A DNA stretch of 64,000 nucleotides, from the NCBI GenBank assembly GCA_021848365.1, contig JAJZUS010000001.1, positions 248,001-312,000 on the forward strand, read 5' to 3'. Below the pieces are notes generated by a model that had not been told where the DNA came from, ran no database searches, and saw only the letters and a list, made by a program, of their open reading frames with translations. Position 1 is the stretch's first letter, and each line of letters opens with the position of its first letter. The DNA comes from Actinomycetes bacterium (GTDB lineage Bacteria; Actinomycetota; Acidimicrobiia; Acidimicrobiales; RAAP-2). This document shows positions 14,156 to 44,023 of this stretch, piece by piece. A program made the position numbers and the translations under genes.

Positions 14156-16015
14156 GTGGAGGTGGTGGTGGCAGTACGGGACGATCGCGAGAGGCGCGAC
14201 CGAGCGATCCTCACTGCCGCGTGGTCGCGGCGTCTCGCGCGTGCCACCGCAACCCTCGCTTTGGCCGGCGCGGTGGTGGCACTCCCGGTGGGCGTCGCGA
14301 GCGCACACGGACGCGACGGTGGATCATCCTGGACGTCCCCGACGGGTGACGGTGGCGCAAGCCGCCAACCCGGCGGAGGGCGCCAGGGCGACGGCCCGGC
14401 TCCCGTACCGACCCCGGTCTCGACGACCGACGGAGTTCCGACCGATGGCGGACCGAGTGGTCCGCGTGACGGGAGTGCTCCCTCGCCGACTCCGGTCTCG
14501 ACGTCCGGCGGGGTCGCCATCGGTGGTGGTCCGAGCATCCCGAGTGACGGGAGAGGTCCCACGTCGACGCCGGTCTCGACGACGGGTGGAGCCCCGACTG
14601 GTGGCGGATCGAGCGCCCCGAATGACGGCCGGGGACCCGTACCGACGGACGGCGGATCTGACGGCCCGGTCGGTCCATCCCAGCCGCCGACGGTCACCTT
14701 CGTCGGGGCGAGCGCGACGGGCGGCGGCACGTACGTCGCCGTGATCACCGCGCCGAACGGCTACACGCCCGTGGCGTCGCTCAGCACCGGAACACCGGCC
14801 CCATTCTCGTATTCCGCCAGCGGATCGGCGGGCTGCTCGATCGCTGCGGTCGGTGGTCCCGTGCAGTACGCGAGCGCCGGGACGTGCGTCGTGGTCGCGA
14901 CGACCACGGTCGCGACCTCGACGACCGACGGCGACGAGATGTCGACGCTCGACGCGTCCTCGATCGCCGGAACGCTCGTTCTCACGGTGCTGCCCGCGTC
15001 GCGCTCGATCACTCTCGCGGGGGGATCCGCCACGGTCGGTGACGTCGTGACCCTCGCGGCTCGGTACGTCGGTGGCGGCGTGGTGACCTACGCCCTGGCT
15101 CCCGGATCGACCGCGGGGTGCCAACTGGGTGCTGCTCAACTCACCGCGGCGACCCCCGCCACGTGCAACGTGGTGGCGTCGCTCTCGTCGTCCGGCCTCG
15201 ACGGACCCGCCGTCTCCGAACCCGCCACCTTCACCTTCTCGAGCCCGCCGGTCGTCGTCTCCCCGCCTCCGGTGACGCCGCCGCCGCCGGTCGTCGTCTC
15301 CCCGCCTCCGGTGACGCCCGCGCCCCGCCTCGCTCCACTCACGGTGTTCGTCACGAGCGAGGTCGTGACTGAGGGCCACCCGATCCTCGTGAGCGCGGAG
15401 GTGTCGGGCGCACTCGCGGGTGACGCCGTGAGCGTCGCTCGGGTCACCCTGACCTACACCGGGGAGGGCGGTCACGCCTACGGCCCGAGCGGGACGCCGC
15501 CCCAGGTACCGGGCACCTACCGGGTGACGCCGTCGCGCGCGACGCTCGAGATCAGCCCGTCCGCGGACGCCGCTCGGTACGCGTCGACCGTGCGCTACGT
15601 CGCCGGGACCCTGGTGGTCGACGCCAAGGTGCGGGCCGTGCGGGTGGCCCCGGTGATCGCCCCGGCGCGCCGTTTCGTCATCGACCCCTTCCCCGAGGGC
15701 TCGTACCAGCTCACGCCCTCGCTCGTTCGCCAGGTGCGTACCATCGCCGAGGTGATCCGTCGTGACGGCTATCGCCACGTCACGATCACGGGCTACACCG
15801 ACAACGTCTTCACCCCGGCCTTCAACGCACTCCTCGACGAGATGCGCGCTCGCTCGGTGGGTGACCTGCTCCGCTCCGAGCTCCAGGCCCTCGGCGTACG
15901 CGGGGTCGGTCTCGCCGAGACGTCGAGTCGAACGGGCGGCTCCGTCGCGAGCAACACGACCGCGGCGGGCCGGGCGCTCAACCGACGCGTCGTCGTGGTC
16001 GTCACGGTCCACTGA
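14156..16015 (+). CDS. secreted repeat protein with C-terminal OmpA/MotB domain
   Basis: A 619-aa exported protein. A long basic N-terminus leads to a signal segment (about 32-50, ending VGVASAHG). Residues 81-158 are three 26-residue Pro/Gly/Thr-rich repeats around TPVSTTGG. Ig-like segments with paired Cys fill about 175-360, then a Pro-Val hinge (two copies of PPVVVSPPPVTP), an MBG-like domain with VTLTYTGEGG, and a C-terminal OmpA-like peptidoglycan-binding domain (about 505-619: VTITGYTDN, TTAAGRALNRRVVV). It probably sits in the wall, tethered to peptidoglycan. The GTG at 14156 is the most upstream candidate; several in-frame GTGs follow within 15 nt. It is followed 15 nt later by a propeller/membrane protein gene, likely in one operon. 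Confidence 0.8.
   Translation: MEVVVAVRDDRERRDRAILTAAWSRRLARATATLALAGAVVALPVGVASAHGRDGGSSWTSPTGDGGASRQPGGGRQGDGPAPVPTPVSTTDGVPTDGGPSGPRDGSAPSPTPVSTSGGVAIGGGPSIPSDGRGPTSTPVSTTGGAPTGGGSSAPNDGRGPVPTDGGSDGPVGPSQPPTVTFVGASATGGGTYVAVITAPNGYTPVASLSTGTPAPFSYSASGSAGCSIAAVGGPVQYASAGTCVVVATTTVATSTTDGDEMSTLDASSIAGTLVLTVLPASRSITLAGGSATVGDVVTLAARYVGGGVVTYALAPGSTAGCQLGAAQLTAATPATCNVVASLSSSGLDGPAVSEPATFTFSSPPVVVSPPPVTPPPPVVVSPPPVTPAPRLAPLTVFVTSEVVTEGHPILVSAEVSGALAGDAVSVARVTLTYTGEGGHAYGPSGTPPQVPGTYRVTPSRATLEISPSADAARYASTVRYVAGTLVVDAKVRAVRVAPVIAPARRFVIDPFPEGSYQLTPSLVRQVRTIAEVIRRDGYRHVTITGYTDNVFTPAFNALLDEMRARSVGDLLRSELQALGVRGVGLAETSSRTGGSVASNTTAAGRALNRRVVVVVTVH
14396..14629 (+). repeat. three 78-bp tandem repeats inside CDS
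   Basis: Three imperfect 78-bp units, each encoding 26 residues centred on TPVST[TS]xG, plus a partial fourth unit to about 14665. Period and frame are kept, so they change only repeat number of the surface stalk. Confidence 0.75.
15245..15315 (+). repeat. two 36-bp tandem repeats encoding a Pro-rich hinge
   Basis: Nearly identical 36-bp units (15245-15280, 15281-15315) encoding PPVVVSPPPVTP twice, linking the Ig-like part to the C-terminal half of the OmpA-domain protein. Confidence 0.8.
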
Positions 16016-28051: not shown

Positions 28052-28059
28052 TCGTGGTG

Positions 28060-28078
28060 GGGGATTCACGAAAGTCGG
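28060..28078 (-). repeat. left copy of island-end motif
   Basis: Read on the minus strand this is CCGACTTTCGTGAATCCCC; the copy at 37612-37631 (+) reads CCGACTTTCGTGACTTCCCC. The two differ by one substitution and one base of length, and lie in opposite orientations at the two sides of the accessory island. Confidence 0.5.
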
Positions 28079-28275
28079 AGACTAAGGGGCTTCTGGGCGT
28101 TCGGGTAGGTGCCGGGCGCTTGTTAACTGGAAGTCGATGCTGCGCTAACTGGTGACCGCCGCCACCAGGAACTATGCTTGCGTGCGTCAAAGGCCAATCT
28201 GGGCAGTTTCGTCATCACGCATGGCTGCGAGACACGCCGACGCGCGCGATGCCGCCAATTTCCTGTACTGCGCGT

Positions 28276-28734
28276 CTACGAGTCCTGTTCTTCGTCAGCC
28301 CGGAAGAGGGTACCGCGCCGAAGTGCGGCTCGTTTGAGTTCTACCGCTACACGTTCGCACTGCCTGCGAGAGGTGTGGATATCCCTGAAGTCGATCGAGC
28401 GGTGGTGCGGGGTTGTGGGGGTGCATGCGGCATCATCAATCACGCGACGCTTCACTTCCTCGGCCTCGGCGACAGTGACACCCCATATCCCCGCCGAGGA
28501 CCGTTTGAGTGTGTCGGTGTACAACTCCCAAGCCGCTTGTGGAGTCAGAGCGGTACCGTCTTGAAAGGACAGCTTCCCTCCATCGTTGGCACTCGGTCGG
28601 AATGCGTGGGAACCAGGCTCTCCACCCGAGAGCATTCCGGGATGGATCTGGCGGTATAGCAACGCTTCGCCGTTGGTCACCAGCGACTCGCACGGCTCAA
28701 GTTCGGGGAACTGTCCAGGTGTGTTGATGCTCAC
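28276..28734 (-). CDS. conserved-looking protein of unknown function (module gene B)
   Basis: A 152-aa soluble protein, second gene of a two-gene unit; its ATG overlaps the stop of the upstream gene (ATGA). It begins MSINTPGQFPELEPCESLV and has sequence-like landmarks that do not look random: LLYRQIHPGMLSGGEPGSHAF, ANDGGKLSFQDG, SAGIWGVTVAEAEEV and a C-terminal basic helix RRQCERVAVELKRAALRRG. No transmembrane segment or known catalytic signature. I recall similar uncharacterised proteins in actinobacterial accessory regions but cannot name a family. Confidence 0.7.
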   Translation of the reverse strand: MSINTPGQFPELEPCESLVTNGEALLYRQIHPGMLSGGEPGSHAFRPSANDGGKLSFQDGTALTPQAAWELYTDTLKRSSAGIWGVTVAEAEEVKRRVIDDAACTPTTPHHRSIDFRDIHTSRRQCERVAVELKRAALRRGTLFRADEEQDS

Positions 28735-29834
28735 ATGAGATCCCTGAGGAGGAAGACTGCATCGGATGGAGTGACGCGCTCATGGTGCGCATCGGATTCG
28801 CTCGTATCGCCGACGACGAACATATCGAGTGCGCCACTTACGGCGACATCAAGTGCCACGTCTGCACCGTCGATGGTCCACTCAAACCGGACCCCTCCTT
28901 CTACGGTCGGGTAGACGCGGGGCGCGGGGAGTTCATCCGCCGCGAAGAGCTCCAGTACGGAACGAGCGGCGTCCACGGCGTCGGTCGACGGTCCGGTCCC
29001 GGTCCCATCGAACCAGCCGTCTGTGAGCAGGACAATCCCGTTGAGGCTGGCCATTGCAGCCACATAATCCGGCGTCGGCGGTCCAACGAGGTCAAAGCTT
29101 TGGATGCTTTCCATGCTCACAACGGTGTCGCTTGCGTCGAGGACGGCAACCCCTTCGACGCGGACTCGTGGTCCTGAGCCCAGGGGGTGCAGAGCCTCCT
29201 TGATACTGTCAAAGTGTTCGAGGGCTTCGGCGGCTCGGATTGTCTTCCCGTTGAGTTGCCTGATGTCGAAATCGCCGCGGTCGGCCAGATCCGAGACGGT
29301 ACCAAGCAGAATCCAGTCTCTCTTGTAGTTCTTCGATGCGCGTAGGACGAGCTCCTTTCGCACCGATGGCGTGTAGCGCGGGTTGCGGTCAGACCCAGGA
29401 GAGTGGAGTTCGATCACTTCGTCCCCACGCAGCGTCTTGCCGAACCGGTTGAACTGCGCCAGCGCCTCCAGTGGGAACTCTGTCGGGAAATCTATCGAGC
29501 CGTCGACTGATGCTACGGCGTCGCTCACCAAGTCACGTGCTCCCGTGAACGGGTCATCGACGCCGAAAAGTCTATCGCTCGGCCGTTCGAGAACCGGAAT
29601 GGCACTACCGTTGTCGACACGGACCAGACGGAGATCCAGCCCGTCAGCGAAATTCTTGGGCACACGCTGCCTTTCAGGATTACGCCCGCGAAATACGGCG
29701 CGAGCGACCTCGAAAAGCAGATCGCGGTATGCGGCGAGCTCGGCCAAAGAGTCCACCGGTATTCCAGGGTCTTCGAACCTAGCGCCGATGAACCGAAGTT
29801 CGGCAAAGCGCCTTCCCCCCGTTGCTTCGGACAC
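28731..29834 (-). CDS. protein of unknown function (module gene A)
   Basis: A 367-aa soluble protein, first gene of the two-gene unit. The N-terminal third (RFAELRFIGARFEDPGIPVD, then LAAYRDLLFEVARAVFRGR and KNFADGLDLRLVRVDNGSA) reads as a folded domain; the middle has RKELVLRASKNYKRDWILLG followed by a beta-rich region with ADRGDFDIRQLNG; the C-terminus is acidic and beta-rich. No membrane segment, no Walker or metal motif. Base composition is lower in GC than the core genes. The tight coupling with the 152-aa gene says the two products act together; whether as toxin-antitoxin, defence or something else is not visible. Confidence 0.75.
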   Translation of the reverse strand: MSEATGGRRFAELRFIGARFEDPGIPVDSLAELAAYRDLLFEVARAVFRGRNPERQRVPKNFADGLDLRLVRVDNGSAIPVLERPSDRLFGVDDPFTGARDLVSDAVASVDGSIDFPTEFPLEALAQFNRFGKTLRGDEVIELHSPGSDRNPRYTPSVRKELVLRASKNYKRDWILLGTVSDLADRGDFDIRQLNGKTIRAAEALEHFDSIKEALHPLGSGPRVRVEGVAVLDASDTVVSMESIQSFDLVGPPTPDYVAAMASLNGIVLLTDGWFDGTGTGPSTDAVDAARSVLELFAADELPAPRVYPTVEGGVRFEWTIDGADVALDVAVSGALDMFVVGDTSESDAHHERVTPSDAVFLLRDLM

Positions 29835-30038
29835 AACGGCAGTCTAAGGCAGTTCGACGCCGCTGTCACGCGCTACGGGCTCGCACATCTTCCTGATACA
29901 GGAGGAGATTTCGCGGGCGAAACTGATGTCATGGCTGCTGCCGTGTGACAAAGGGGAGAAGAACTCACCACTCGATTCGGTTTCCAGGTGGTGAATCGGC
30001 CTCCAGAGGTCCGGAGAGTCGACGCAGGTTCGTGAGGC

Positions 30039-30677
30039 TCAAGTCTTCGCTACCGACTGCGACACGCGAAGCCACCGATGACGAGCAACATCAAGTCGGT
30101 AGATGGCGTGGTCGCTCTTGGGCAGGGTCGAGTACGAAGCCGGCGCAACTTGGATCCGAATCTCTCCGCTCGACTGCGGGGCCTGGGTTATCGACCAGGT
30201 GTCAGCACCGTTGACGTACTGGTACCACTGGTGACCCGCGTCGGTCGAGACGTCGATGACCGCGTTGCTCACCATGACTACCGCGCTGGCGCCGAACGAC
30301 ATCACGCGGCCGATGTAGAAGATGCTCCCGCCGGCCCAGTCAGTCGCGAGCATTGATCCGGCGGCCCTCCACCTCAGACCTCCGTTTGTGCTGCGCACCG
30401 CGAACTCGCCCGGTCCCCCGTCCTGCTTCCATACTCCCCACTCGACCGGGGACTTCGCGGAGTGAAGGACTACCCACTTGGCCTGAGAAGTTGGGATGAG
30501 CGTCCCCCAGGGGAGTGGGCGCACCACGTTCGCCTCAGTCAATCCGTGCTGCATCGGCAGCACCGCCGGGAATGGGACTGAGGTGGTCGCAGCGGCCGGG
30601 GCGTCGGAGGCTGCAAAGGAAGCGACGGCGACTCCTGAGACGACCAGCGCGGGTATCGCTCGCAGGACGTTCTTCAT
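30039..30677 (-). CDS. secreted protein, BNR/sialidase-like beta fold
   Basis: A 212-aa exported protein. The ATG at 30677 is preceded by GGAG at 8 nt and begins MKNVLRAIPALVVSGVAVAS, a signal peptide cleaved near AAATTS. The mature part contains two copies of an Asp/Gly-rich turn following beta strands (STNGGLRWRAAGS and STDAGHQWYQYVNG), the Asp-box S-x-D/N-x-G-x-x-W pattern of BNR repeats, as in extracellular glycan-binding or photosystem-assembly-like propellers. Too short for a full propeller. Single gene; function unknown. Confidence 0.7.
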   Translation of the reverse strand: MKNVLRAIPALVVSGVAVASFAASDAPAAATTSVPFPAVLPMQHGLTEANVVRPLPWGTLIPTSQAKWVVLHSAKSPVEWGVWKQDGGPGEFAVRSTNGGLRWRAAGSMLATDWAGGSIFYIGRVMSFGASAVVMVSNAVIDVSTDAGHQWYQYVNGADTWSITQAPQSSGEIRIQVAPASYSTLPKSDHAIYRLDVARHRWLRVSQSVAKT

Positions 30678-30995
30678 GCTTAGCTCCACTGTGATCTGCC
30701 TCCCTTGACATTCGACAGCTCGTGCACCCGTGAGTTCATCTCCTCACTGTGCCCATCCTTACCGGTCAGGCCAGGAGACAGACAGCGGATTCGACCGTGC
30801 GGTCGGCGACTTCAGCGGCACTTTCGAGGTACGTTCTTCTCCCCTCTATCACACGGCAGCATGGCTGGGAAGACTTCCACCGAGGTATAGCTAGGAGGCT
30901 CCCGACGACTTCGTGGCGGCAATCAAGGCGCCTATGGCTGGTCGTTACCTCCAACACCTACTTGGGCCACTGTCTCTGGTGGCTCGGCGTGTGAA
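30678..30995. other. 318-bp gap, nothing recognised
   Basis: No open frame over 80 codons has plausible content, and I see no tRNA, repeat or convincing terminator. The promoter for the leftward secreted-protein gene should lie in its first 100 bp. Confidence 0.5.
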
Positions 30996-31517
30996 TCAGC
31001 ACTCGTTTGCACGGGCACGCCTCCAACCAGCCCTGCCGTCGATCAGGCGCTCCTGACTGGGCAGCCTTCTCAACTGCATGATGAATCGAAGGTCTGTGAG
31101 CGACGCAATGGCCAAGTAGAAGAGTGAGGTCGTCAGGGCTATGCGCCACACGCTTGAAACGAAGAACAATGCACCGATTCCGATGGGTAGGAGCAAGGTC
31201 GGTGCCAGGAGGACGAGAACTGCTTGTCGGGCAGTGTGACACCCTATCCCAACAAGACCAAGCGACCCCCGCGAGAAAATCGGTCGCGGCAGTCTCCCAG
31301 TGCAGCCTGCCCATCCAATTGCGTGAACCACTTCATGTGACACGGTGGCGCAAATGAGCACGGCAAGGACAGCGACAGCGGACTTGACTCCATGTAGATG
31401 TAATGCAGTAAGGGCACCGACAACGACAACCGTGACGGCGACGATGCCCTCAGTGACGTACCGCGGGCCGCTACGGACCACGAATGCGACCAGCTCCGGG
31501 CTGGTCTCTTCATTCAT
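30996..31517 (-). CDS. DUF3267-like membrane metalloprotease homologue
   Basis: A 173-aa integral membrane protein with four predicted helices. The second helix holds the zinc-protease motif HEVVHAIGW (HExxH). The arrangement of a small protein with HExxH inside the membrane and further helices (VLVLLAPTLLLPIGIGALFF) matches the DUF3267 group of putative site-2-like proteases. Residues such as FRIMQ and a basic C-terminus suggest a cytoplasmic end. Divergent from a small membrane protein gene only 24 bp away, which may share its promoter region. Substrate unknown. Confidence 0.72.
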   Translation of the reverse strand: MNEETSPELVAFVVRSGPRYVTEGIVAVTVVVVGALTALHLHGVKSAVAVLAVLICATVSHEVVHAIGWAGCTGRLPRPIFSRGSLGLVGIGCHTARQAVLVLLAPTLLLPIGIGALFFVSSVWRIALTTSLFYLAIASLTDLRFIMQLRRLPSQERLIDGRAGWRRARANEC

Positions 31518-31541
31518 CGGACAGTGGTGCAGGTGATCGAC

Positions 31542-31775
31542 ATGCCGTCCCCCTTCAGTTCTGTAAGCATCTCACTCGGAGTCGTTCTGGTGCTCGCGTA
31601 TCATCACTCGATCACTGGGCAAGTACTTGGTCTTCTCTCATTGCTCGCCGGAATCGTGATGTTCTCATGGGAGCACGGGCTGTTCAAGCCGGAACGGAAG
31701 CGGAGGGATTACACGAGTCCGGTATCCGACCTGGCCGAGGCGCCTGAAGGACCGTTAGGTCGGACACGGGATTAG
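31542..31775 (+). CDS. small membrane protein of unknown function
   Basis: A 77-aa protein with two adjacent hydrophobic segments (about 8-23 and 26-44) and a charged C-terminal tail (LFKPERKRRDY onward). I chose the ATG at 31542 with AGGTG about 7 nt before it; a GTG at 31524 is also in frame. It is transcribed away from the HExxH membrane protein. Possibly a partner or substrate of that protein; this is only a neighbour-based guess. Confidence 0.5.
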   Translation: MPSPFSSVSISLGVVLVLAYHHSITGQVLGLLSLLAGIVMFSWEHGLFKPERKRRDYTSPVSDLAEAPEGPLGRTRD

Positions 31776-31848
31776 CATGCTCGACGGTCATAATTGTCCC
31801 GTCGCGCTGGTCTTGAAGTAAGAGGTGGGCACTGGTCTTTCGTGAAAG

Positions 31849-32811
31849 TCAGCACACAGTTCTCAGCGCAGCCTCAAAGTCGTGCCGAGCTTCATCCACA
31901 CTCACGCGCTGTCCAGCCATGAGTAAGAGCAGCCCCTCGACGGTCCAGACCACCTGGACGCCGTGACGAGAGAAGTAGAGGCCGACTTCGTCGACCCGGT
32001 ACTGCTGATTCGTGTCAAGCAGGACGTAGCCCAGGATCTGCCAGAGGTCGAGGCGCTCGATCTGGGAGGCGGTGACGGTCTTGACGTCGATCAGTCGATG
32101 TCCTGCGATGAGATCGGCGTCGGCACCTCCGACGAACGCACTGGCCGCGAAAGTTGGATTCGCGACGATCTCAGATTCGAGCAGGACGTCTTGGGTGGCC
32201 GTCAGTGTTCCCGCGAGCGCGGCGAGATCGGCTCTCATCGTGGGTGTAGCGAGAGTGAGCACGTCTTGGAGCTCGACTAGGGGACCGAGGTCGTCTAGTG
32301 GGGAGTGGACCGCCCCGCCCATTCGGAAGACCTCCTCATAGAGAGCGAGCACTAAGCAGAGCGCTCCGAGCTCCTGCTCGAACTCGGTCTCGCCTCGGCG
32401 GGAGGGCTCCTCCTCTCTCAGGGCTGCCACGCGCTCCTCGAGCTCCTCGAAGGCATGCGGGAGACCAACATTGCCCCACGCCTCGTTGAGCCTCTCGGCT
32501 CCGCGGTGGGCCCCCCGGTGATCACCATCGCGTGGCGGGTAGAAGAAGCGCACGCGGTAGTCGAAGGCAACGCCCACGCTGGACCAGCGGTACGAGCGCC
32601 GGTCCGTCAACTCGGGTATCACCACGGGGTCACCAAGGCGCCAGACTGGCTTCTTCGGGCGAGCGGCTGACGGTACGTAGAGTCCTCGAACGATCCCCGG
32701 GTCCTCAGTCGGCGCGAGCACGGCGCGAGCCGCGCCAACATCGCCGAAGCGCTCGGCGAAGAAGCGGTGAATCGGGCTCGAGGTGTCCTTCAGGTGACTC
32801 GTCAGCGACAC
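31849..32811 (-). CDS. PD-(D/E)XK nuclease-like protein
   Basis: A 320-aa soluble protein. Around residues 228-244 it has GGADADLIAGHRLIDVKT: Asp231/Asp233, then Asp242-Val-Lys244 on the next strand, which is the layout of the PD-(D/E)XK nuclease core (acidic residue, hairpin, D-x-K). A Gln-containing helix follows (IERLDLWQILGYVLL), as in many such enzymes. The N-terminal two thirds are helical with no known domain. The GTG has GGAGGA upstream. It lies downstream of the zinc-ribbon/GIY-YIG gene in the same orientation, separated by 96 bp. Likely DNA target; type (restriction, defence) not proven. Confidence 0.72.
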   Translation of the reverse strand: MSLTSHLKDTSSPIHRFFAERFGDVGAARAVLAPTEDPGIVRGLYVPSAARPKKPVWRLGDPVVIPELTDRRSYRWSSVGVAFDYRVRFFYPPRDGDHRGAHRGAERLNEAWGNVGLPHAFEELEERVAALREEEPSRRGETEFEQELGALCLVLALYEEVFRMGGAVHSPLDDLGPLVELQDVLTLATPTMRADLAALAGTLTATQDVLLESEIVANPTFAASAFVGGADADLIAGHRLIDVKTVTASQIERLDLWQILGYVLLDTNQQYRVDEVGLYFSRHGVQVVWTVEGLLLLMAGQRVSVDEARHDFEAALRTVC

Positions 32812-32907
32812 GACCTATTCCTCCTTCGCGTGGTTCGCACTGCTTTGCTCAAGCAGCTGCGACGTACCTGTTGCAGAGAACCAGAGTCGCGGGTGGGTGC
32901 CACAGAC

Positions 32908-34263
32908 TCATCCGACATGAGTAGGAGAACCTCCGCCCCCCGCTGACCGAACGTCCGTGACAAGCTCCCCAAGTTCGGCCACCGGGAACTCTCTCTCGAT
33001 CCACGCCTCCGTGTAGCCACTGAAGCGACCCGCAATGCGGGTGTCGCCGAGAGTGACGCCGCGCCCCCGCAAATCCTTCAGTGTCGTCTGTTCGAGGTCT
33101 CGGGCGAGCTGTCCGTCCATAGGCCCGCGCATCTCGATGAGCCGCCACCCGAGGGCGCGGTGTGCGGCCATGCGCGACTTGGGAGAGTTGGTGATCCCGA
33201 TCTGCAGCATGCCCCAGCGGTCGTGCCGCAGTAGGTAGAGCCACGCGGGTTTAATCGGGTCGTAGCCGTACTTGGCGCAAGTGGCGCACCCTCGACCGTC
33301 GCACCGTGACTTGATCTCGGCTCGCCACTGGTGACCCGCTTCGCATCGCCACGCACGGATGTGGTGTGAGTCGACGACTTCGGTGGAGGGGTCCCAGCCG
33401 TCGGCCTCGGCAGCGAGCTGGGGAAAGTGCGTGGCGAGGTCGTTGAAGCCAGCGAGCACGCGGCGATTGGCGCAGTAGGGGCAACCCTGGTTGCGACCGG
33501 TCCGGTGGAGCACCGTCGTCGTCCACCGGTGTCCGAGCGAGCACACCCAGGCCATCTTGCGATGGGATCCAGCGAGGACGGCGCTCGGGTCCCAGCCGTC
33601 GGCCTCGGCAGCGACGTCTGGAAAGAGCGTGGCCAGGTCATTGAAGCCGGTTAGTACCTGGCGTTTGGCACACACGGGACAGCCGTTGCCCGCGACGCGG
33701 CTGTTCATGGCGGCTCGCCACTGGTGCCCCTCCCCGCAGATCCAGGCGAGACCCTTGCCGGAACCGGCGATGACGGTCGTGGGGTCCCAGCCGTCAGCCT
33801 GGGCAGCGAGTTCTGGATGAGTGGTCGCGAGGTCGTTGAACCCCGCCAGCACCTTCTGATTGGCGCAGTAGGGACAACCAACACCGCTGGCTCGGCTCTT
33901 CACCTGAGCCGCCCACTGATGTCCATCGGCGCAGCGCCACAGACGCAGCGCGTGCGAACCGGGAACCAAGGTTGCCGGGTCCCAGCCGTCAGCCTGGGCA
34001 GCGAGTTCTGGATGAGTGGTCGCGAGGTCGTTGTATCCCGGCCAAGCGAGGCGGTTCGTGCAGTAGGGGCACCCCGCGCCATCGCCATGGGTGCGCTGAT
34101 TCGGCGACGCGAGCCACCGATGTCCTCGCCGACAGACCCACGGTAACTTCGCGGCCGAGCCGTAGGAGACGGTCGACGCATCCCAGCCGTCTGCCTCCGC
34201 TGCTAACTCGGGTGAAGCGTCGAGGACTGACCTGTGGGGTCGCGAATGCGGCTGGCGGGACAC
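32908..34263 (-). CDS. five-fold zinc-ribbon (DUF4379-like) protein with GIY-YIG nuclease domain
   Basis: A 451-aa protein. Residues about 15-335 are five tandem units of about 62 residues, each with ELAAQADGWDP, WxCxxGHxW and a CPYC pair, so four zinc ligands (C, H, C, C) per unit, as in the treble-clef/zinc-ribbon DUF4379 family. The C-terminal domain (about 338-430) starts WLYLLRHDRWGMLQIGIT: Tyr343 and the QIG segment match GIY-YIG, followed by an Arg in SPKSRMAAHR. That architecture joins repeated DNA reading with a single cutting domain. It begins 3 nt after the upstream gene's stop. Host defence or a homing-type endonuclease are both possible. Confidence 0.8.
   Translation of the reverse strand: MSRQPHSRPHRSVLDASPELAAEADGWDASTVSYGSAAKLPWVCRRGHRWLASPNQRTHGDGAGCPYCTNRLAWPGYNDLATTHPELAAQADGWDPATLVPGSHALRLWRCADGHQWAAQVKSRASGVGCPYCANQKVLAGFNDLATTHPELAAQADGWDPTTVIAGSGKGLAWICGEGHQWRAAMNSRVAGNGCPVCAKRQVLTGFNDLATLFPDVAAEADGWDPSAVLAGSHRKMAWVCSLGHRWTTTVLHRTGRNQGCPYCANRRVLAGFNDLATHFPQLAAEADGWDPSTEVVDSHHIRAWRCEAGHQWRAEIKSRCDGRGCATCAKYGYDPIKPAWLYLLRHDRWGMLQIGITNSPKSRMAAHRALGWRLIEMRGPMDGQLARDLEQTTLKDLRGRGVTLGDTRIAGRFSGYTEAWIEREFPVAELGELVTDVRSAGGGGSPTHVG
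33290..34220 (-). repeat. five tandem repeats of about 186 bp inside CDS
   Basis: The DNA encodes the same 62-residue zinc-ribbon unit five times; segments such as the 20 bases before GGGTCCCAGCCGTC recur at 33385, 33585, 33785 and 33975. The near identity at DNA level implies recent expansion or gene conversion. Confidence 0.7.
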
Positions 34264-34266
34264 GGG

Positions 34267-34812
34267 CTACTTCGACCGCGCCTCGTCGCGGAGCAGTTGG
34301 CGAAGACTCAGCGAGCTCTCCTTTAGCCGCTCGAAGGCCACGTTCATCCCCTTGTACGCGTCGAACCTCGGCTGTCCATGCTCCGCCGTGTCGATCGCGC
34401 TGCAGCTCGATAGGAACGCGTTCCATCGGCCGTTCGCCTCCTCCACCGCCGTCTCCACCTGCCCAGGCAGGAACAGCGAGACCATGGCGTCGACGTTCGG
34501 ATTCTGGATGTCGGAGTGGTCCTCTCGCTCGACGAACTCCGTGCCGCGCCGGTACTTCGCGACGAGGGCTTCGGCGGTCTCCAGCTGGAGCGTGCGTTGA
34601 CGCTCGAGGAGTAGGCACGCATCGCGGCGGCTCGCGTAGTCGCGGTCCTCCCGAGCGTCGGCGGCTCGTTGGCGTCGATCGCGAGCACCGCCGAGGTAGG
34701 TCAGACCCCCACCGGCGATTGCGGCGCCGGCGCCGATGACTACGTCGATCCACGACATCGTCTGCCAGTCTGCCCGCTGCATGTGACGAGTGGGGAGAAT
34801 CCGATTGGCCAT
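34267..34812 (-). CDS. membrane-anchored helical protein of unknown function
   Basis: A 181-aa protein with one transmembrane helix near the N-terminus (about 23-43, VVIGAGAAIAGGGLTYLGG) and a long charged helical, likely coiled-coil, cytoplasmic part (QRAADAREDRDYASRRDACL and following). No catalytic motif. It is the first gene of a three-gene leftward run with the GIY-YIG and PD-(D/E)XK-like genes; the next gene starts 3 nt after its stop. AGGG lies just before the ATG at 34812; an ATG at 34758 gives a shorter N-terminus. Its 5' end touches the left end of the transposable element. Confidence 0.65.
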   Translation of the reverse strand: MANRILPTRHMQRADWQTMSWIDVVIGAGAAIAGGGLTYLGGARDRRQRAADAREDRDYASRRDACLLLERQRTLQLETAEALVAKYRRGTEFVEREDHSDIQNPNVDAMVSLFLPGQVETAVEEANGRWNAFLSSCSAIDTAEHGQPRFDAYKGMNVAFERLKESSLSLRQLLRDEARSK

Positions 34813-34838
34813 ACTGGTCCCTAACCAGGTCGAACGCG
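34812..34838 (+). repeat. candidate left inverted repeat of the transposable element
   Basis: This segment, starting TACTGGTCCC and ending TCGAACGCG, resembles the reverse complement of 37437-37463, which starts TACTACCTCA and ends CCGAACGTG. The ends match, the centre does not, so the pairing is imperfect. It overlaps the start of the leftward helical-protein gene. Confidence 0.3.
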
Positions 34839-34906
34839 GTTCACGGCGCTATTTTGTGCCGTCTGCTCCCGCGGGAACGCACCGGCACCGTGTAGGCGTG
34901 GCCCGA

Positions 34907-35794
34907 ATGACACCCAAGGCGAGCGCCCAGGTGGTGGAGTCCTACAACCCCGCGATCGGGCGCCACCACCTGGTGAGTCCCGCGGAGTGGCGGGTTGTTG
35001 CGCCCGTGGTGCGCGAGGCGGTCGCGCCCTTCAAGTACTTGCGCGGTGAGCAGATCCGCGACTACCTGCGAGCGATGACCAAGCTGGCGGCCTTCGTGCT
35101 GCGCCTGGACGGTGAGATGTGTGTCACGGCGGTGCTCTCTCCCACGGCGATCCGGGGCTTCTTGCGCAGTCAGACGGTGGGCGCCCGGGATGAGGAGCCC
35201 TACCTCTGGCGTCTGGCCCGAGCTCATGGCACGCTGCCCGAGACAGCGCCCGTGCGCCACCAGGTCGGTCGGCGCGACCTGCACCCGCCCTACTACGTTG
35301 AGGAGGTCGAGGCCCTCCTGCTCGCCGGACGCAGTCAGCCCACCGAATTGCGCCAGCTCAATGTTCTGGCCATCGTCGTGCTCGGCGCCGGCGCGGGCCT
35401 GGTGCGTGAGAGCGCTCGTGACGTGTGCGCGTTCGACGTGCACCGGCACGCAGATGGTGTGTTCGTGCGCGCACGCGGTCGCTGTGCCAAGGTTCTCCCC
35501 GAGTTCGAAGCCGAGCTCGAAGAGCTGGTACGCGCTCGCCCGGAGGGTCGCCTACTCGGCACGGCTCAGGCGCGCTTCATCACGGCCCAGGCTCACCAGT
35601 GGCTGGACGATCGGCGTGGCGTGCCGCGGCTCTCGGTCGACCGCCTGAGGGCGCGCTACCTCATCGAGCTGATGCGCAGTGGTCACAGTCTCCTCGAGGT
35701 GCTGGCCTTCTCGGGACTCAAGTCCCCCGAGAGCCTGATGCGCCTCGCGGCGCTCCTGCCGGCGCCCTCGATGTGCCCGAAGGACGAGACGTGA
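34907..35794 (+). CDS. tyrosine-recombinase-like protein, catalytic residues incomplete
   Basis: A 295-aa protein. The C-terminal half aligns by pattern with phage-type integrases: LGAGAGLVRESARDVCAFDV around Arg167 matches the first catalytic Arg box, and VDRLRARYLIELMRSGHSLLEVLAFSGLKS matches the H-x-L-R/helix box, with Arg248 in place. However, the usual His before the Leu-Arg is Asp, the position of the second His/Trp is replaced, and no Tyr lies at the nucleophile position before the protein ends. It may be an accessory DNA-binding protein for the transposase. I chose ATG 34907; GTG 34898 is an alternative. Its stop overlaps the transposase start. Confidence 0.7.
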   Translation: MTPKASAQVVESYNPAIGRHHLVSPAEWRVVAPVVREAVAPFKYLRGEQIRDYLRAMTKLAAFVLRLDGEMCVTAVLSPTAIRGFLRSQTVGARDEEPYLWRLARAHGTLPETAPVRHQVGRRDLHPPYYVEEVEALLLAGRSQPTELRQLNVLAIVVLGAGAGLVRESARDVCAFDVHRHADGVFVRARGRCAKVLPEFEAELEELVRARPEGRLLGTAQARFITAQAHQWLDDRRGVPRLSVDRLRARYLIELMRSGHSLLEVLAFSGLKSPESLMRLAALLPAPSMCPKDET

Positions 35795-37434
35795 GCGTCT
35801 CCTGGCTCGCCGAGCACTTGCCCGAGGCCGAGCGCCTGGTTGATGCGGCGCTCGTCGACGACACCCCGGTCCACGAGCACCTGGAGGCCCTACTCGCACA
35901 GAGTTGCCCGCGGCGCGGTCGTCCCCGGGGGCTCTCGGTGCGCACGCTGCTCGTGGCCATCCAACTCGGGGCCTTCGCCGGGCGCTTCTTCCTCATCGAC
36001 CTGCCCGATCTGTTGGAGCCCCTGGGCCCGGCGACGAGGTCTCGCCTGGGCCTCAAGCGCCGCGGTGAGCCGGTCACCTACCGCCAGATCTGCTACCTGG
36101 TCACGCGCATCGACGAGGTGCTGCGTGCGAGCTTCCTCTACCAGGACGGCCGGCTGGTCGACGGACTCGGCGAGTTCGACCGCGTCTTCAACGCCCTGGC
36201 GACAACCGGCGCGCATCCCGACGCAGCGTCAGTCTCCTCAGTCGCCATCGACGGCTCGGACATCCCCACCTGGGGGACGTCCTCTGTCCGAGAGGAGCTC
36301 GTCTGGGAAAGTGACGAGTCTGGTGAGGCGCGCATCGTGCGCGACGATGACGGCGGAGCCCTCTGGAAGAAGGCGCGCATCATCACCGACTCCGACGCCA
36401 CTTGGCGGGGCAGTCGCGAGGTCGAGGGCAAGCCCTCGCACTTCGGCTACAGCCTCACGGTCGCCATCTCGGCGCGCGAGGAGAACGGCCCCGAGGTACC
36501 GCGCGCGGCGCTCGCCGCCCGCCTGCGCCCGGTCACCGTCCAGGACAAGGCCATGGGACTCGCCTGCGTGGGCGAGGTCGCGGAGCGCCGCGACCAGCTC
36601 GGTGACGTGCTGGTGGACCGGGGCTACACGAGCTCACTGGACGGCAAGGACTTCCTACTGCCGCTGCGGGCCCTGGGCGCCGAGCCCGTCTTTGACCTCA
36701 CCGTCCACCAGGTGGGGCCTCAGGGAACGGTGCGCGGAGCCCTCATCCTCGGTGGACACCCCTTCTCGCCCGCCACGCCGCGGGCCATGCACCAGATCGA
36801 TCGGCCCACCGGCACGCAGAACGGCACCTACATGCCGGCGCATCGGGCAGTGCGCGAGTACCAGGCGCAGATCGCCGCGCGCGCGGCCTACGCGCTCGTG
36901 CCTCACGGGGCGGTCCGCGACAATTTGACCCAGGTCTTCCAGTGCCCGGGCTCGGCCGGCAAGCTCGAGTGTCCGCTGCGCCCCGCGCGACGGAGGCTTC
37001 GTGAAGGAGCTCTGCCGGTCCTCAACGCACCGCGGCGCCCCGGTGACGACAGCGTCTGTGCGAGGTCCTTCACGACGTTCTGCCTCGAGGAGATCCCGCT
37101 CATCCAGCGCCACATCCACGGCTCGACCGAGTGGGCGAGGAGCTACTCGCGCCGCCAGACCACTGTGGAGACCTACTTCGCCAACATCAAGGACGGCGCG
37201 AGCGAGAACTTCTCGCGTGGGCGCATCCGGGTCATGGGCATCGTGAAGATCGGTCTCTTCGTCGCGGCCACCCTCGCGAGCGCCAACCGGCGTCTGGCCC
37301 TCTCCTTTGATCCCGAACGCATCGCCAAGCGCCAGGCCCACCGGCGTCCCGGTCGTCCCACCCGCCATCGCCGCCTCACCTACCGCAAGGTGGTTGAGGA
37401 CGCGAAGGCCTCGATGGTCGTCCTGCGCACCTGA
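35791..37434 (+). CDS. DDE-type transposase
   Basis: A 547-aa transposase. Asp154 (VAIDGSDIPTWG), Asp276 (GDVLVDRGYTSS) and Glu460 (QTTVETYFANIKDG) are spaced as in RNase H-fold DDE enzymes with a long insertion between the second Asp and Glu. A Cys-rich patch (CPGSAGKLECPLRP) may bind zinc inside the insertion. The C-terminal helix VMGIVKIGLFVAATLASANRR is typical after the Glu. The GTG start overlaps the stop of the recombinase-like gene. Family not named with certainty; it is not one of the best-known IS groups by eye. Confidence 0.8.
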   Translation: MSVSWLAEHLPEAERLVDAALVDDTPVHEHLEALLAQSCPRRGRPRGLSVRTLLVAIQLGAFAGRFFLIDLPDLLEPLGPATRSRLGLKRRGEPVTYRQICYLVTRIDEVLRASFLYQDGRLVDGLGEFDRVFNALATTGAHPDAASVSSVAIDGSDIPTWGTSSVREELVWESDESGEARIVRDDDGGALWKKARIITDSDATWRGSREVEGKPSHFGYSLTVAISAREENGPEVPRAALAARLRPVTVQDKAMGLACVGEVAERRDQLGDVLVDRGYTSSLDGKDFLLPLRALGAEPVFDLTVHQVGPQGTVRGALILGGHPFSPATPRAMHQIDRPTGTQNGTYMPAHRAVREYQAQIAARAAYALVPHGAVRDNLTQVFQCPGSAGKLECPLRPARRRLREGALPVLNAPRRPGDDSVCARSFTTFCLEEIPLIQRHIHGSTEWARSYSRRQTTVETYFANIKDGASENFSRGRIRVMGIVKIGLFVAATLASANRRLALSFDPERIAKRQAHRRPGRPTRHRRLTYRKVVEDAKASMVVLRT

Positions 37435-37436
37435 GA

Positions 37437-37463
37437 CACGTTCGGTCCTGAGTTGAGGTAGTA
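37437..37463 (-). repeat. candidate right inverted repeat of the transposable element
   Basis: Partner of 34812-34838; matches are concentrated at the two ends (TACT and CGAACG) and it lies 2 nt after the transposase stop. Confidence 0.3.
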
Positions 37464-37466
37464 GCT

Positions 37467-37492
37467 GACCCCCGCACGCCCGTGCGGGGGTC
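37467..37492. terminator. 11-bp hairpin GACCCCCGCAC-GCCC-GTGCGGGGGTC
   Basis: A perfect 11-bp stem with a 4-nt loop 32 nt after the transposase stop; symmetric, so it can end transcription in either direction. Confidence 0.65.
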
Positions 37493-37561
37493 TCGCCACA
37501 TCTACGCCGCGCGCTCGACGGCGACGAGGCCCGAACGAGGCCAACGCCGGGCCGCGAAAGC

Positions 37562-37599
37562 AAAAATCCCGGCTCGCACGACGCGAACCGGGACTTTTG
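37562..37599. terminator. bidirectional terminator with A and T tracts
   Basis: AAAAAT before and ACTTTT after an imperfect 11-bp stem (TCCCGG-TCGC paired with GCGA-CCGGGA, one mismatch) around 37566-37593: the form of an intrinsic terminator on both strands. It ends transcription of tRNA-Ile and of the island side. Confidence 0.65.
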
Positions 37600-37611
37600 T
37601 GACTTGGGAAG

Positions 37612-37631
37612 CCGACTTTCGTGACTTCCCC
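37612..37631 (+). repeat. right copy of island-end motif
   Basis: CCGACTTTCGTGACTTCCCC, immediately before the 3' end of tRNA-Ile (in tRNA orientation). A related tandem copy, GGGACTTTTGTGACTT, lies just upstream at about 37591-37606. Inverted partner at 28060-28078. Confidence 0.5.
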
Positions 37632-37632
37632 G

Positions 37633-37709
37633 TGGTGGGGCTAGTAAGAATCGAACTTACGACCTCGTCATTATCAGTGACGCGCTCTAACCGACTGAGC
37701 TATAGCCCC
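37633..37709 (-). tRNA. tRNA-Ile (GAT)
   Basis: 77 nt with encoded CCA. Acceptor GGGGCTA/TAGCCCC, D-arm AGCTCAGTCGGTTAGAGC, anticodon loop TGATAAT (anticodon GAT), T-loop TTCGATT. It forms the right border of the accessory island. Confidence 0.96.
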
Positions 37710-43513: not shown

Positions 43514-43975
43514 GTGACCCACTGGCTGAGCGACGACGAGCGGCGGGCCTGGAAGGCGCTCGCCCTGATGGAGCTCCAGCTCGGGCGAGCGCTCGAGCGG
43601 GGGCTGGTCGCTGAGGGGCTCTCGCTCTCCGACTACCACGTCCTCGCCACCCTGACCGACGAGCCCGACGGACGCCGGCGCGTCGTCGAGCTGGGCGACG
43701 AGCTCGGATGGGAGAAGAGTCGGATCTCGCATCACGTGGCTCGCATGGCGCGCCGGGGGCTCGTCGCCAAGGTCGAGTGCCCCACCGATCGTCGTGGGGC
43801 CTACGTCGTCGTGACCGAGGTCGGACGCCGCGTCATCGAGCGGGCGGCGCCCCTCCACGTGGCGGCGGTCCGGCGTCTCGTGATCGATCGTGTCGACCCG
43901 TCGGACCTGGCCGCGGTCGAGCGGGTGGCCGAGAGGGTGCTCGAGGGACTCGCCGCGGAGCGCCCAACGTCATGA
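43514..43975 (+). CDS. MarR-family transcriptional regulator
   Basis: A 153-aa winged-helix repressor. WLSDDERRAWKALALMELQL starts the dimerisation helix; the HTH and wing are LGDELGWEKSRISHHVARMARRGLV and CPTDRRGAYVVVTEVGR, matching the MarR consensus. The long frame upstream is discarded in favour of GTG 43514, 6 nt after a -10 hexamer. Divergent from the dioxygenase/esterase operon, which it probably represses in the absence of an aromatic or oxidative signal. Confidence 0.92.
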   Translation: MTHWLSDDERRAWKALALMELQLGRALERGLVAEGLSLSDYHVLATLTDEPDGRRRVVELGDELGWEKSRISHHVARMARRGLVAKVECPTDRRGAYVVVTEVGRRVIERAAPLHVAAVRRLVIDRVDPSDLAAVERVAERVLEGLAAERPTS

Positions 43976-44007
43976 GGCCGGGCCCCGAAGGGCCCGGCCT
44001 CATGACG
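43968..44007. terminator. 18-bp perfect bidirectional hairpin
   Basis: CGTCATGAGGCCGGGCCC (43968-43985) and its exact inverse (43990-44007) with loop CGAA. It overlaps the last codons and stop (TGA 43973-43975) of marR and lies just beyond the end of the leftward cytochrome operon, so it can stop both. The stop codon being part of the stem is unusual. Confidence 0.75.
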
Positions 44008-44023
44008 TCGTGGGGGGACGAGG

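What the first reader, a model, noticed from the sequence alone, without database searches (positions are those of the whole stretch)
31849..34812. Three-gene run: membrane helical protein, five zinc-ribbons plus GIY-YIG, PD-(D/E)XK-like protein
Two different nuclease folds next to each other, with a membrane-anchored helical protein and tight spacing (3 nt and 96 nt), inside an accessory island near a mobile element, is the layout of a defence operon. The five-fold zinc-ribbon array with a single GIY-YIG is unusual and its repeats look recently expanded. I know of no named defence system with these three components. This is the window's best candidate for an undescribed system.
Basis: inference. 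Interest (0 to 1): 0.78.

Follow-up and report, generated by a model that had tools for sequence, protein, structure and literature searches.

The report
Nuclease cargo of a tRNA-seeking transposon
The three genes are real, but they are passengers of a small mobile DNA element that inserted beside a transfer-RNA gene; one encodes a nuclease from a poorly known family that elsewhere sits next to several different anti-virus systems, so it is a good single-gene defence candidate, while the trio does not look like a conserved system.

Summary
In detail: ORFs A (membrane-anchored helical), B (five DUF4379 zinc fingers plus GIY-YIG) and C (PD-(D/E)XK-like) lie where stated, 3 and 96 nt apart. They are cargo of one mobile element, 28063-37631: a 98%-identical relative has the empty site, and the insertion has inverted ends and a 9-bp direct repeat at the tRNA-Ile 3' end. 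It also carries a DDE transposase, a tyrosine-recombinase-like gene and a PADLOC defence candidate (PDC-M32A).

The trio is not a conserved system. Of 99 genus genomes, A is in 5, B in 11, C in 8, all three in 2; one copy keeps A and C without B. A is beside the recombinase-like gene in 5 of 5.

C is the interesting part. Its family is absent from Pfam; D231, D233 and K244 are invariant in 14 sequences. Some relatives sit next to Type III R-M, Wadjet, Avs2, pPIWI-RE or Hachiman genes; others are fused to UvrD helicase. B resembles free-standing or homing endonucleases; 8 neighbours of its relatives gave no defence match.

Most likely C is a defence-associated nuclease, B a selfish-type endonuclease, A an element protein. 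Interest 0.5; new member of a known kind.

The parts
28054..28062 (.). left copy of the direct repeat GTGGTGGGG
   Evidence: empty site in G744 (L153) has one copy
28063..37631 (.). whole inserted element, 9,569 bp (boundaries uncertain by up to about 4 nt because GGGG is shared by the direct repeat and the ends)
   Evidence: 98.2%-identical left flank (8,471 bp) and 96.0%-identical right flank (1,283 bp) join in G744 without it; inverted ends match at 18 of 20 positions
28731..29834 (-). cargo gene, PDC-M32A candidate defence protein (367 aa)
   Evidence: PADLOC E=7.4e-81; no PADLOC hit in the two neighbouring cargo ORFs
30039..30689 (-). cargo ORF, 216 aa, unknown; a 45%-identical relative lies near a recombinase-like/DDE pair in G727
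30996..31517 (-). cargo ORF, 173 aa, DUF3267 putative zincin
   Evidence: Pfam E=3.6e-6
31849..32811 (-). C: PD-(D/E)XK nuclease-like protein, 320 aa, core about 211-305
32908..34263 (-). B: five DUF4379 treble-clef zinc fingers plus C-terminal GIY-YIG, 451 aa
34267..34812 (-). A: N-terminal hydrophobic segment plus hydrophilic, probably helical protein; probable true start 34758 (163 aa)
34790..35794 (+). tyrosine-recombinase-like protein (334 aa ORF; homologues suggest a start near 34907)
   Evidence: the family assignment is weak
35794..37434 (+). DDE transposase, remotely IS1182-like (start approximate)
   Evidence: Pfam DDE_Tnp_1_6 E=1.7e-4, under its cut-off; NCBIfam transpos_IS1182 E=2.1e-7, far under its cut-off
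37632..37640 (.). right copy of the direct repeat GTGGTGGGG, covering the 3' end of tRNA-Ile plus 1 bp
37633..37709 (-). tRNA-Ile (gat), the insertion target, left intact
   Evidence: ARAGORN

Best explanation
The three genes are cargo of a 9.6-kb transposon-like element that inserted at the 3' end of tRNA-Ile (shown). They are separate modules, not one system (inferred from distribution). C is a defence-associated RecB/Cas4-like nuclease that most likely cuts or degrades incoming phage or plasmid DNA, alone or beside host defence systems (inferred). B is a sequence-recognising endonuclease of the free-standing or homing kind: its zinc-finger array reads DNA and its GIY-YIG domain cuts, probably harming competing elements or favouring its own spread (inferred). 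A is a single-pass membrane protein that goes with the element's recombinase-like gene (association shown in 5 of 5 genomes with A; role unknown).
For: Element and empty site. Same int/DDE/A/B/C block in G415 at the same tRNA. A next to int in 5 of 5 genomes with A. All three together in 2 of 99 genomes. C's core residues conserved in 14 sequences. C relatives beside Type III Res-Mod (23 nt), between a PDC-M68 pair and Hachiman HamAB, 77 nt before an Avs2 ORF, 87 nt after JetD of Wadjet, and 70-350 nt (depending on the start chosen) from pPIWI-RE genes. 90 neighbour proteins from 10 C regions gave Wadjet, Lamassu, Avs2, pPIWI-RE and R-M hits at E<=1e-20, against only mad3, DEDDh, PDC-S48 and a GlgB-like model in 76 control proteins. 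C relatives fused to UvrD helicase. B relatives lie among varied, mostly unrelated neighbours in the 9 of 12 loci where my gene calls found the B ORF; tandem roughly 60-aa DUF4379/CapR-like repeats plus a C-terminal nuclease is a published homing-endonuclease layout (PMC12350094, passages read).
Against: A, B and C keep the same order with a 3-nt A-B gap in the window, and the same order in a diverged genome, under purifying selection, which co-function would also explain. A and C co-occur more than chance (3 seen, 0.40 expected, P=0.003), though as parts of one element. No cleavage by any of the three is shown. The C control is small and not matched: 10 chosen regions, several on plasmid-like contigs or near contig ends, against 7 control regions from mid-contig positions, Streptomycetaceae only; a generally accessory location could give part of the difference. 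In the first C set only 10 of 124 neighbours went to PADLOC, and several were picked because they looked like defence genes. Five of the 10 proteins and three of the 10 had no defence hit. Profile comparison of C with PDDEXK_1 is not significant (E=0.064), though it aligns LIDxKT with IIDYKT and the Q..Y motif. Foldseek on B found only DUF4379 arrays, no GIY-YIG structure.
Confidence: 0.6

Rival explanations
1. A, B and C are one undescribed anti-phage system carried by the element: A senses or anchors at the membrane, B recognises and nicks foreign DNA, C degrades it.
For: Tight spacing, shared order and purifying selection in two genomes about 20% diverged in protein; a Shine-Dalgarno-like AAGGAGG before C in both G000 and G415; defence context of C's family.
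Against: Together in only 2 of 99 genomes; G730 keeps A and C without B; G421 has B with int-DDE but no A or C; A or C was not found around 13 B relatives, nor A or B around C relatives.
Confidence: 0.2
2. The trio serves the element itself: B is a homing-type nuclease that promotes spread or excludes rivals, C processes element DNA, A regulates the recombinase-like gene; there is no anti-phage role.
For: A is tied to int; B recurs near int-DDE in G421; C recurs beside a divergent int-DDE pair in G744; several element ends at the same tRNA in G415 suggest competition between elements.
Against: No int or DDE match in the fetched flanks of 4 other C genes of the genus (L061-L064) and no int match around the 12 C relatives L027-L038 (DDE not queried there); several C relatives sit against known defence genes. 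G424 has int and DDE with no A, B or C in its genome.
Confidence: 0.17
3. Passive cargo: unrelated genes swept up by the element, on their way to loss.
For: Cargo differs between copies: sigma-70-like and GNAT genes in G415; truncated A in G726.
Against: dN/dS well under 1 for all three in the close pairs, and intact frames.
Confidence: 0.03

Closest known systems
UvrD-Cas4-like helicase-nuclease fusions (pfam12705 group; Cas4 phylogenomics, PMC5704561, passages read)
   Same: PD-(D/E)XK nuclease fused to UvrD, found stand-alone as a gene, beside Type III Mod/Res genes and in other defence contexts; proposed ancillary role in several pathways.
   Different: The window's C is not fused. C's family does not match Pfam PDDEXK_1 (14 members), has only one cysteine column conserved in 10 or more of 14, and profile comparison is not significant.
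PADLOC RTasPDDEXK (nuclease associated with defence reverse transcriptases, from the model's name)
   Same: Only PADLOC match of the window's C, E=4.6e-10 over the catalytic core.
   Different: Only the core matches; no search for a reverse transcriptase gene around C was made.
Homing endonucleases with CapR/DUF4379/DUF723-like repeats in phage group II introns (PMC12350094, passages read)
   Same: Three to five roughly 60-aa domains distantly related to these models followed by one C-terminal nuclease domain.
   Different: There the nuclease is EDxHD/Vsr-like and intron-borne; B has GIY-YIG, and no intron was looked for.
Phage endonuclease family phrog_681 and phage relatives
   Same: B matches at E=2.6e-43; 225 phage records hold a tblastn match, 33 of them over at least 80% of B.
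   Different: The 20 listed rows are about 25-31% identical; their neighbours were not examined beyond the annotation under the match.
IS1182-type transposons
   Same: The element's DDE gene matches the IS1182 model weakly.
   Different: 30 bits against a cut-off of 270; it comes with a recombinase-like partner and cargo, and a 9-bp direct repeat at a tRNA 3' end.

Membership tests
multi-gene anti-phage defence system (A-B-C) | components conserved together across genomes | tested here: not met
   2 of 99 genus genomes hold all three; A-C without B in G730
multi-gene anti-phage defence system (A-B-C) | protects against phage | not testable with these tools
   needs plaque assays
PD-(D/E)XK nuclease superfamily (C) | conserved catalytic D ... 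(D/E)xK | tested here: met
   D231, D233, K244 in 14 of 14; position 242 D in 13, E in 1; PADLOC PDDEXK model E=4.6e-10
PD-(D/E)XK nuclease superfamily (C) | nuclease fold | tested here: inconclusive
   single-sequence AlphaFold2 model pLDDT 37; no credible PDB relative by sequence
Cas4/AddB-type nucleases (PF12705) | match to PDDEXK_1 and four-cysteine cluster | tested here: not met
   no PDDEXK_1 match at E<=1 in 14 members; one Cys column conserved in 10 or more of 14; hhalign E=0.064
UvrD-Cas4-like ancillary defence nucleases | fusion or linkage to UvrD helicase and defence neighbours | tested here: inconclusive
   met in some relatives, but the window protein itself is unfused and its nuclease domain is not shown to be the same family
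GIY-YIG nuclease (B) | two-strand/helix core with conserved Y, G, R, E (motif recalled) | tested here: met
   model and invariant Y343, G356, R364, E391; phrog_681; but no GIY-YIG structure matched by Foldseek and no GIY-YIG Pfam hit
homing endonuclease (B) | cuts alleles lacking it and copies itself into them | not testable with these tools
   no precise B-less allele with intact flanks found; the G730 junction is a replacement of about 1.8 kb
IS1182 family (element) | transposase over the NCBIfam cut-off | tested here: not met
   30.2 bits against 270
PDC-M32 defence candidate (element cargo) | M32A plus M32B (both names seen in PMC12429752, passages) | tested here: not met
   M32A E=7.4e-81; A, B and C give no M32B hit; nor do 30039 and 30996. 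int and DDE were not given to PADLOC

The most novel reading that the evidence does not exclude
A cargo-carrying transposon class in which a DDE transposase works with a tyrosine-recombinase-like partner (its putative catalytic Tyr replaced by Leu in the window's clade) that steers insertion to tRNA 3' ends and ferries exchangeable anti-phage genes; among these, C is a plug-in nuclease that serves several unrelated defence systems (Wadjet, Avs2, pPIWI-RE, Type III R-M, Hachiman).
Probability: 0.27. Interest if true: 0.72.

Novelty: new member of a known kind. Interest (0 to 1): 0.5.

Why it matters
C's family is absent from Pfam, and the window's C matches only one PADLOC model, over its core; yet relatives sit next to at least five different known defence systems (Type III R-M, Hachiman, Wadjet, Avs2, pPIWI-RE). 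If it is an accessory nuclease used by several of them, one small protein could be tested in several systems at once. The element gives a cleanly bounded example, with an empty site, of how candidate defence genes move into a 2-Mb genome through a tRNA gene.

Tried and rejected
Structure of C: single-sequence AlphaFold2 gave pLDDT 37 and was not used; a profile search of PDB sequences gave nothing credible (3 matches, best E=0.23); comparison with PDDEXK_1 proteins not significant (E=0.064; two unrelated comparisons gave 0.34 and 0.6). B against PDB sequences gave cutinase matches at E 0.017-0.16 (taken as chance) and one trypanosome DUF4379 protein at 0.13; Foldseek found only DUF4379 arrays at E<=0.001 (7 matches). 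Viral-contig scans for A and C found no relative; one for B. A has no Pfam, NCBIfam or PADLOC match and only weak PHROGs matches (best E=0.046), no plasmid match, and matches only its own genome among 296 class genomes. A-like architecture near C relatives was not enriched (3 of 46 and 3 of 52 eligible ORFs, against 1 of 24 controls). The idea that a degenerate end at 31837 makes the element composite was considered but is too short a match to claim. dN/dS for int pairs and for DDE pairs with G730 used wrong frames or ends and is discarded. The reading of a methylase fragment after A in G736 is from memory of the motif; it was dropped from the Pfam call because the frame I gave had stops. Insertion by an ordinary tyrosine integrase, with the 9-bp repeat as its att core, was not excluded; the inverted ends and the DDE gene made me prefer a transposon. 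Paper searches for tRNA-inserting DDE/tyrosine-recombinase or IS1182-like elements (12 of 20 papers listed; 8 of 803 listed) and for C-like defence nucleases showed no matching description in the listings, beyond the Cas4 paper used here; the listings are capped and cover only the held library.
Full report
Observation. The three minus-strand ORFs lie exactly as described, with gaps of 3 and 96 nt. B has five DUF4379 treble-clef fingers and a C-terminal endonuclease match. Its AlphaFold2 model is good locally (mean pLDDT 84.5, pTM 0.40), with a GIY-YIG-like order of strands and helices at 340-400 and invariant Y343, G356, R364, H368, E391 in 10 sequences. C has the D231/D233 ... D242-x-K244 ... 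Q258-x3-Y262 pattern; in 14 sequences D231, D233, K244, Q258, G261 and Y262 are invariant and D242 is replaced once, by E. A has one N-terminal hydrophobic stretch and is otherwise hydrophilic; its start is more likely 34758.

The mobile element. GC drops from about 0.70 to 0.60-0.67 across 28-35 kb. G744, a close relative, shows why: its DNA matches the window at 98.2% over 8,471 bp up to 28062 and then continues at 37628 with 96.0% identity over 1,283 bp. At the junction G744 has one copy of GTGGTGGGG; the window has two, at 28054-28062 and 37632-37640, the second covering the 3' end of tRNA-Ile. The ends are inverted repeats matching at 18 of 20 positions. So 28063-37631 is one insertion that carries a DDE transposase, a recombinase-like gene, A, B, C and three more ORFs, one of them PDC-M32A (PADLOC E=7.4e-81).

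The same block elsewhere. In G415, contig C4 starts inside tRNA-Ile and carries DDE, int, A, B and C in the same order (B 83%, A 80%, C 73.5% identity), after which the cargo differs. In G730 int, DDE, A (75%) and C (66%) are there, but B is not; about 1.8 kb of other sequence with an opposite-strand ORF lies in its place. DNA similarity to G415 runs a little way past the A stop, into the start of B, before it fades, which hints at loss of B but does not prove it. G736 has DDE, int and A, then about 600 bp and the contig end. G726 has a truncated A beside int. G424 has int and DDE without A, B or C.

Distribution. In 99 genomes of the genus: C in 8, int relatives in 24, many of them weak, A in 5, B in 11. 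All three occur together in G000 and G415 only. Many of these genomes are fragmented or incomplete, so absences are not all certain. Overlaps against chance: A with B 2 (0.56 expected, P=0.094), A with C 3 (0.40, P=0.003), B with C 2 (0.89, P=0.22) (genomes treated as independent, which they are not). Among 13 loci with B relatives from other genomes, tblastn at E<=0.01 found no A and no C in the DNA held. Among 237 predicted ORFs from C neighbourhoods (10 of them C itself) no A homologue and no DUF4379-like motif was found. C was found in 8 of 396 phylum genomes (own genome included) and in 26 of 200 genomes of one Streptomycetaceae sample using a profile.

What C is. Pfam has no family for it (no credible match in 14 members at E<=1). 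Relatives stand alone or are fused behind a UvrD helicase (Pfam-checked in one, L031; 8 of the 20 plasmid rows listed, of 64 records, are annotated so). Neighbours: in G717, Res, Mod (MTase_III E=5e-250) and C run in one direction with 23 nt before C; on an Embleya plasmid C lies between a PDC-M68 pair and HamA-HamB, all on one strand. Of 10 Streptomycetaceae regions fetched, at least 3 have a core defence gene next to C: an Avs2 ORF 77 nt downstream (E=6.7e-232), JetD of a Wadjet locus 87 nt upstream, and pPIWI-RE genes on the other strand, 70 nt away by the longest ORF and about 350 nt by the profile match. At E<=1e-20, 90 neighbour proteins of 100 aa or more from these 10 regions hit Wadjet, Lamassu, Avs2, pPIWI-RE, PDC-M19 and R-M models (28 families, 25 shown). 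76 proteins from control regions of the same genomes hit only mad3 (2 proteins), DEDDh, PDC-S48 and a GlgB-like model. Limits: the 10 regions were chosen by me from the list, mostly for stand-alone C; several lie near contig ends or on plasmid-like contigs while controls are mid-contig; two control stretches did not exist and one was only 1.4 kb and gave no protein; gene calls are my own; of the first set of 124 neighbours only 10 were given to PADLOC, several because they looked like defence genes, and 5 of those 10 had no hit. A published survey describes UvrD-Cas4-like fusions beside Type III Mod/Res genes and in other settings, with a proposed ancillary role (PMC5704561, passages read). 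C works like those, but I do not file it there: no PDDEXK_1 match, no cysteine cluster, profile comparison not significant.

What B is. Relatives were found in Prochlorococcus, Synechococcus and actinobacterial MAGs (13 loci). Of 10 such loci scanned, two lie within 300 bp of a tRNA or tmRNA gene (L014, L020) and four more have one 2.5-4.2 kb away (the base rate was not measured). Their neighbours vary (9 of 12 listed loci with a called B ORF), and the 8 that I tested give no PADLOC hit. In phages 225 records match; in 13 of the 20 listed rows, some of them duplicate records of one phage, the match overlaps or abuts an anaerobic ribonucleotide reductase gene, a typical place for homing endonucleases (recalled). 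A 2025 paper reports homing endonucleases with three to five roughly 60-aa domains distantly related to CapR, DUF4379 and DUF723 ahead of a C-terminal nuclease (PMC12350094, passages read). B's layout is therefore unusual but not unprecedented.

What A is. It has no relative outside the genus in what I searched and is beside int in 5 of 5 genomes that have it; G424 has a close int without A. I take it as part of the element's own gene set.

The carrier. Relatives of the int-DDE pair stand beside different tRNA genes: Ile (window, G415, G736; G730 with 2 kb between), a tRNA-Ile remnant (G711), Met (G424), Arg (G417) and Ser (G230, G744 contig 6). That is 9 of 15 such loci fetched; in three the contig ends inside the DDE gene (G421, G719, G726) and in three no tRNA was found (G727, G744 contig 46, G429). 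The recombinase-like family call rests on weak matches (XerD model E=0.14) and on motifs that I recall: in 11 aligned members the His-x-x-Arg box reads D-(R/Q)-L-R, and the column where the nucleophile tyrosine would fall is Leu in 5 (window, G415, G730, G424, G726) and Tyr in 6 (G736, G421, G719, G727, G230, G417). So the window's copy may be inactive, while others may not be. tRNA targeting by such a pair is the most novel reading; insertion by an ordinary tyrosine integrase is not excluded.

Verdict. The claim of an undescribed three-gene defence system is not supported as stated. The nuclease C, with its defence neighbourhoods, and the tRNA-seeking carrier are what deserve follow-up.

Noticed in passing
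34790-37631: Recombinase-like gene plus DDE transposase: int relatives in 24 of 99 genus genomes, beside tRNA genes of several kinds in 9 of 15 fetched loci; possibly an undescribed tRNA-targeting transposon with a tyrosine-recombinase-like partner.
   Followed up: partly
L047 43-11400: In G415 several element ends lie in tandem at the same tRNA-Ile (ends near 51, 9735/9763 and 11380), suggesting repeated insertion at one site.
   Followed up: partly
28731-29834: PDC-M32A defence candidate inside the element, without a PDC-M32B hit in the five other cargo proteins tested.
   Followed up: partly
31837-31860: A degenerate copy of the element end overlaps the C stop codon; the element might be a fusion of two.
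   Followed up: no
L108 8015-8620: After A in G736 a fragment that reads like an EcoRI-type adenine methylase, then what looks like the start of a transposase and the contig end (both readings recalled, not searched).
   Followed up: no
L112 6405-7154 and L059 10040-10819: A zinc-ribbon-like protein occurs both near a B relative in G728 and in the place of B in G730 (similarity seen by eye; no Pfam match over cut-off for the G730 copy); perhaps a recurring island gene.
   Followed up: no
L160, L162, L170, L180, L183: In some Streptomycetaceae genomes C or longer C-containing ORFs lie within about 50 kb of the ends of chromosome-sized contigs (G912 and G926 at both ends, G828 at one), as if telomere-proximal.
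   Followed up: no
43967-44008: 42-bp inverted repeat (90% match) in the window, in a GC dip.
   Followed up: no
14399-14628: Tandem repeat with a 78-bp offset, 74% identical; the same stretch is where G744 aligns in two overlapping pieces.
   Followed up: no
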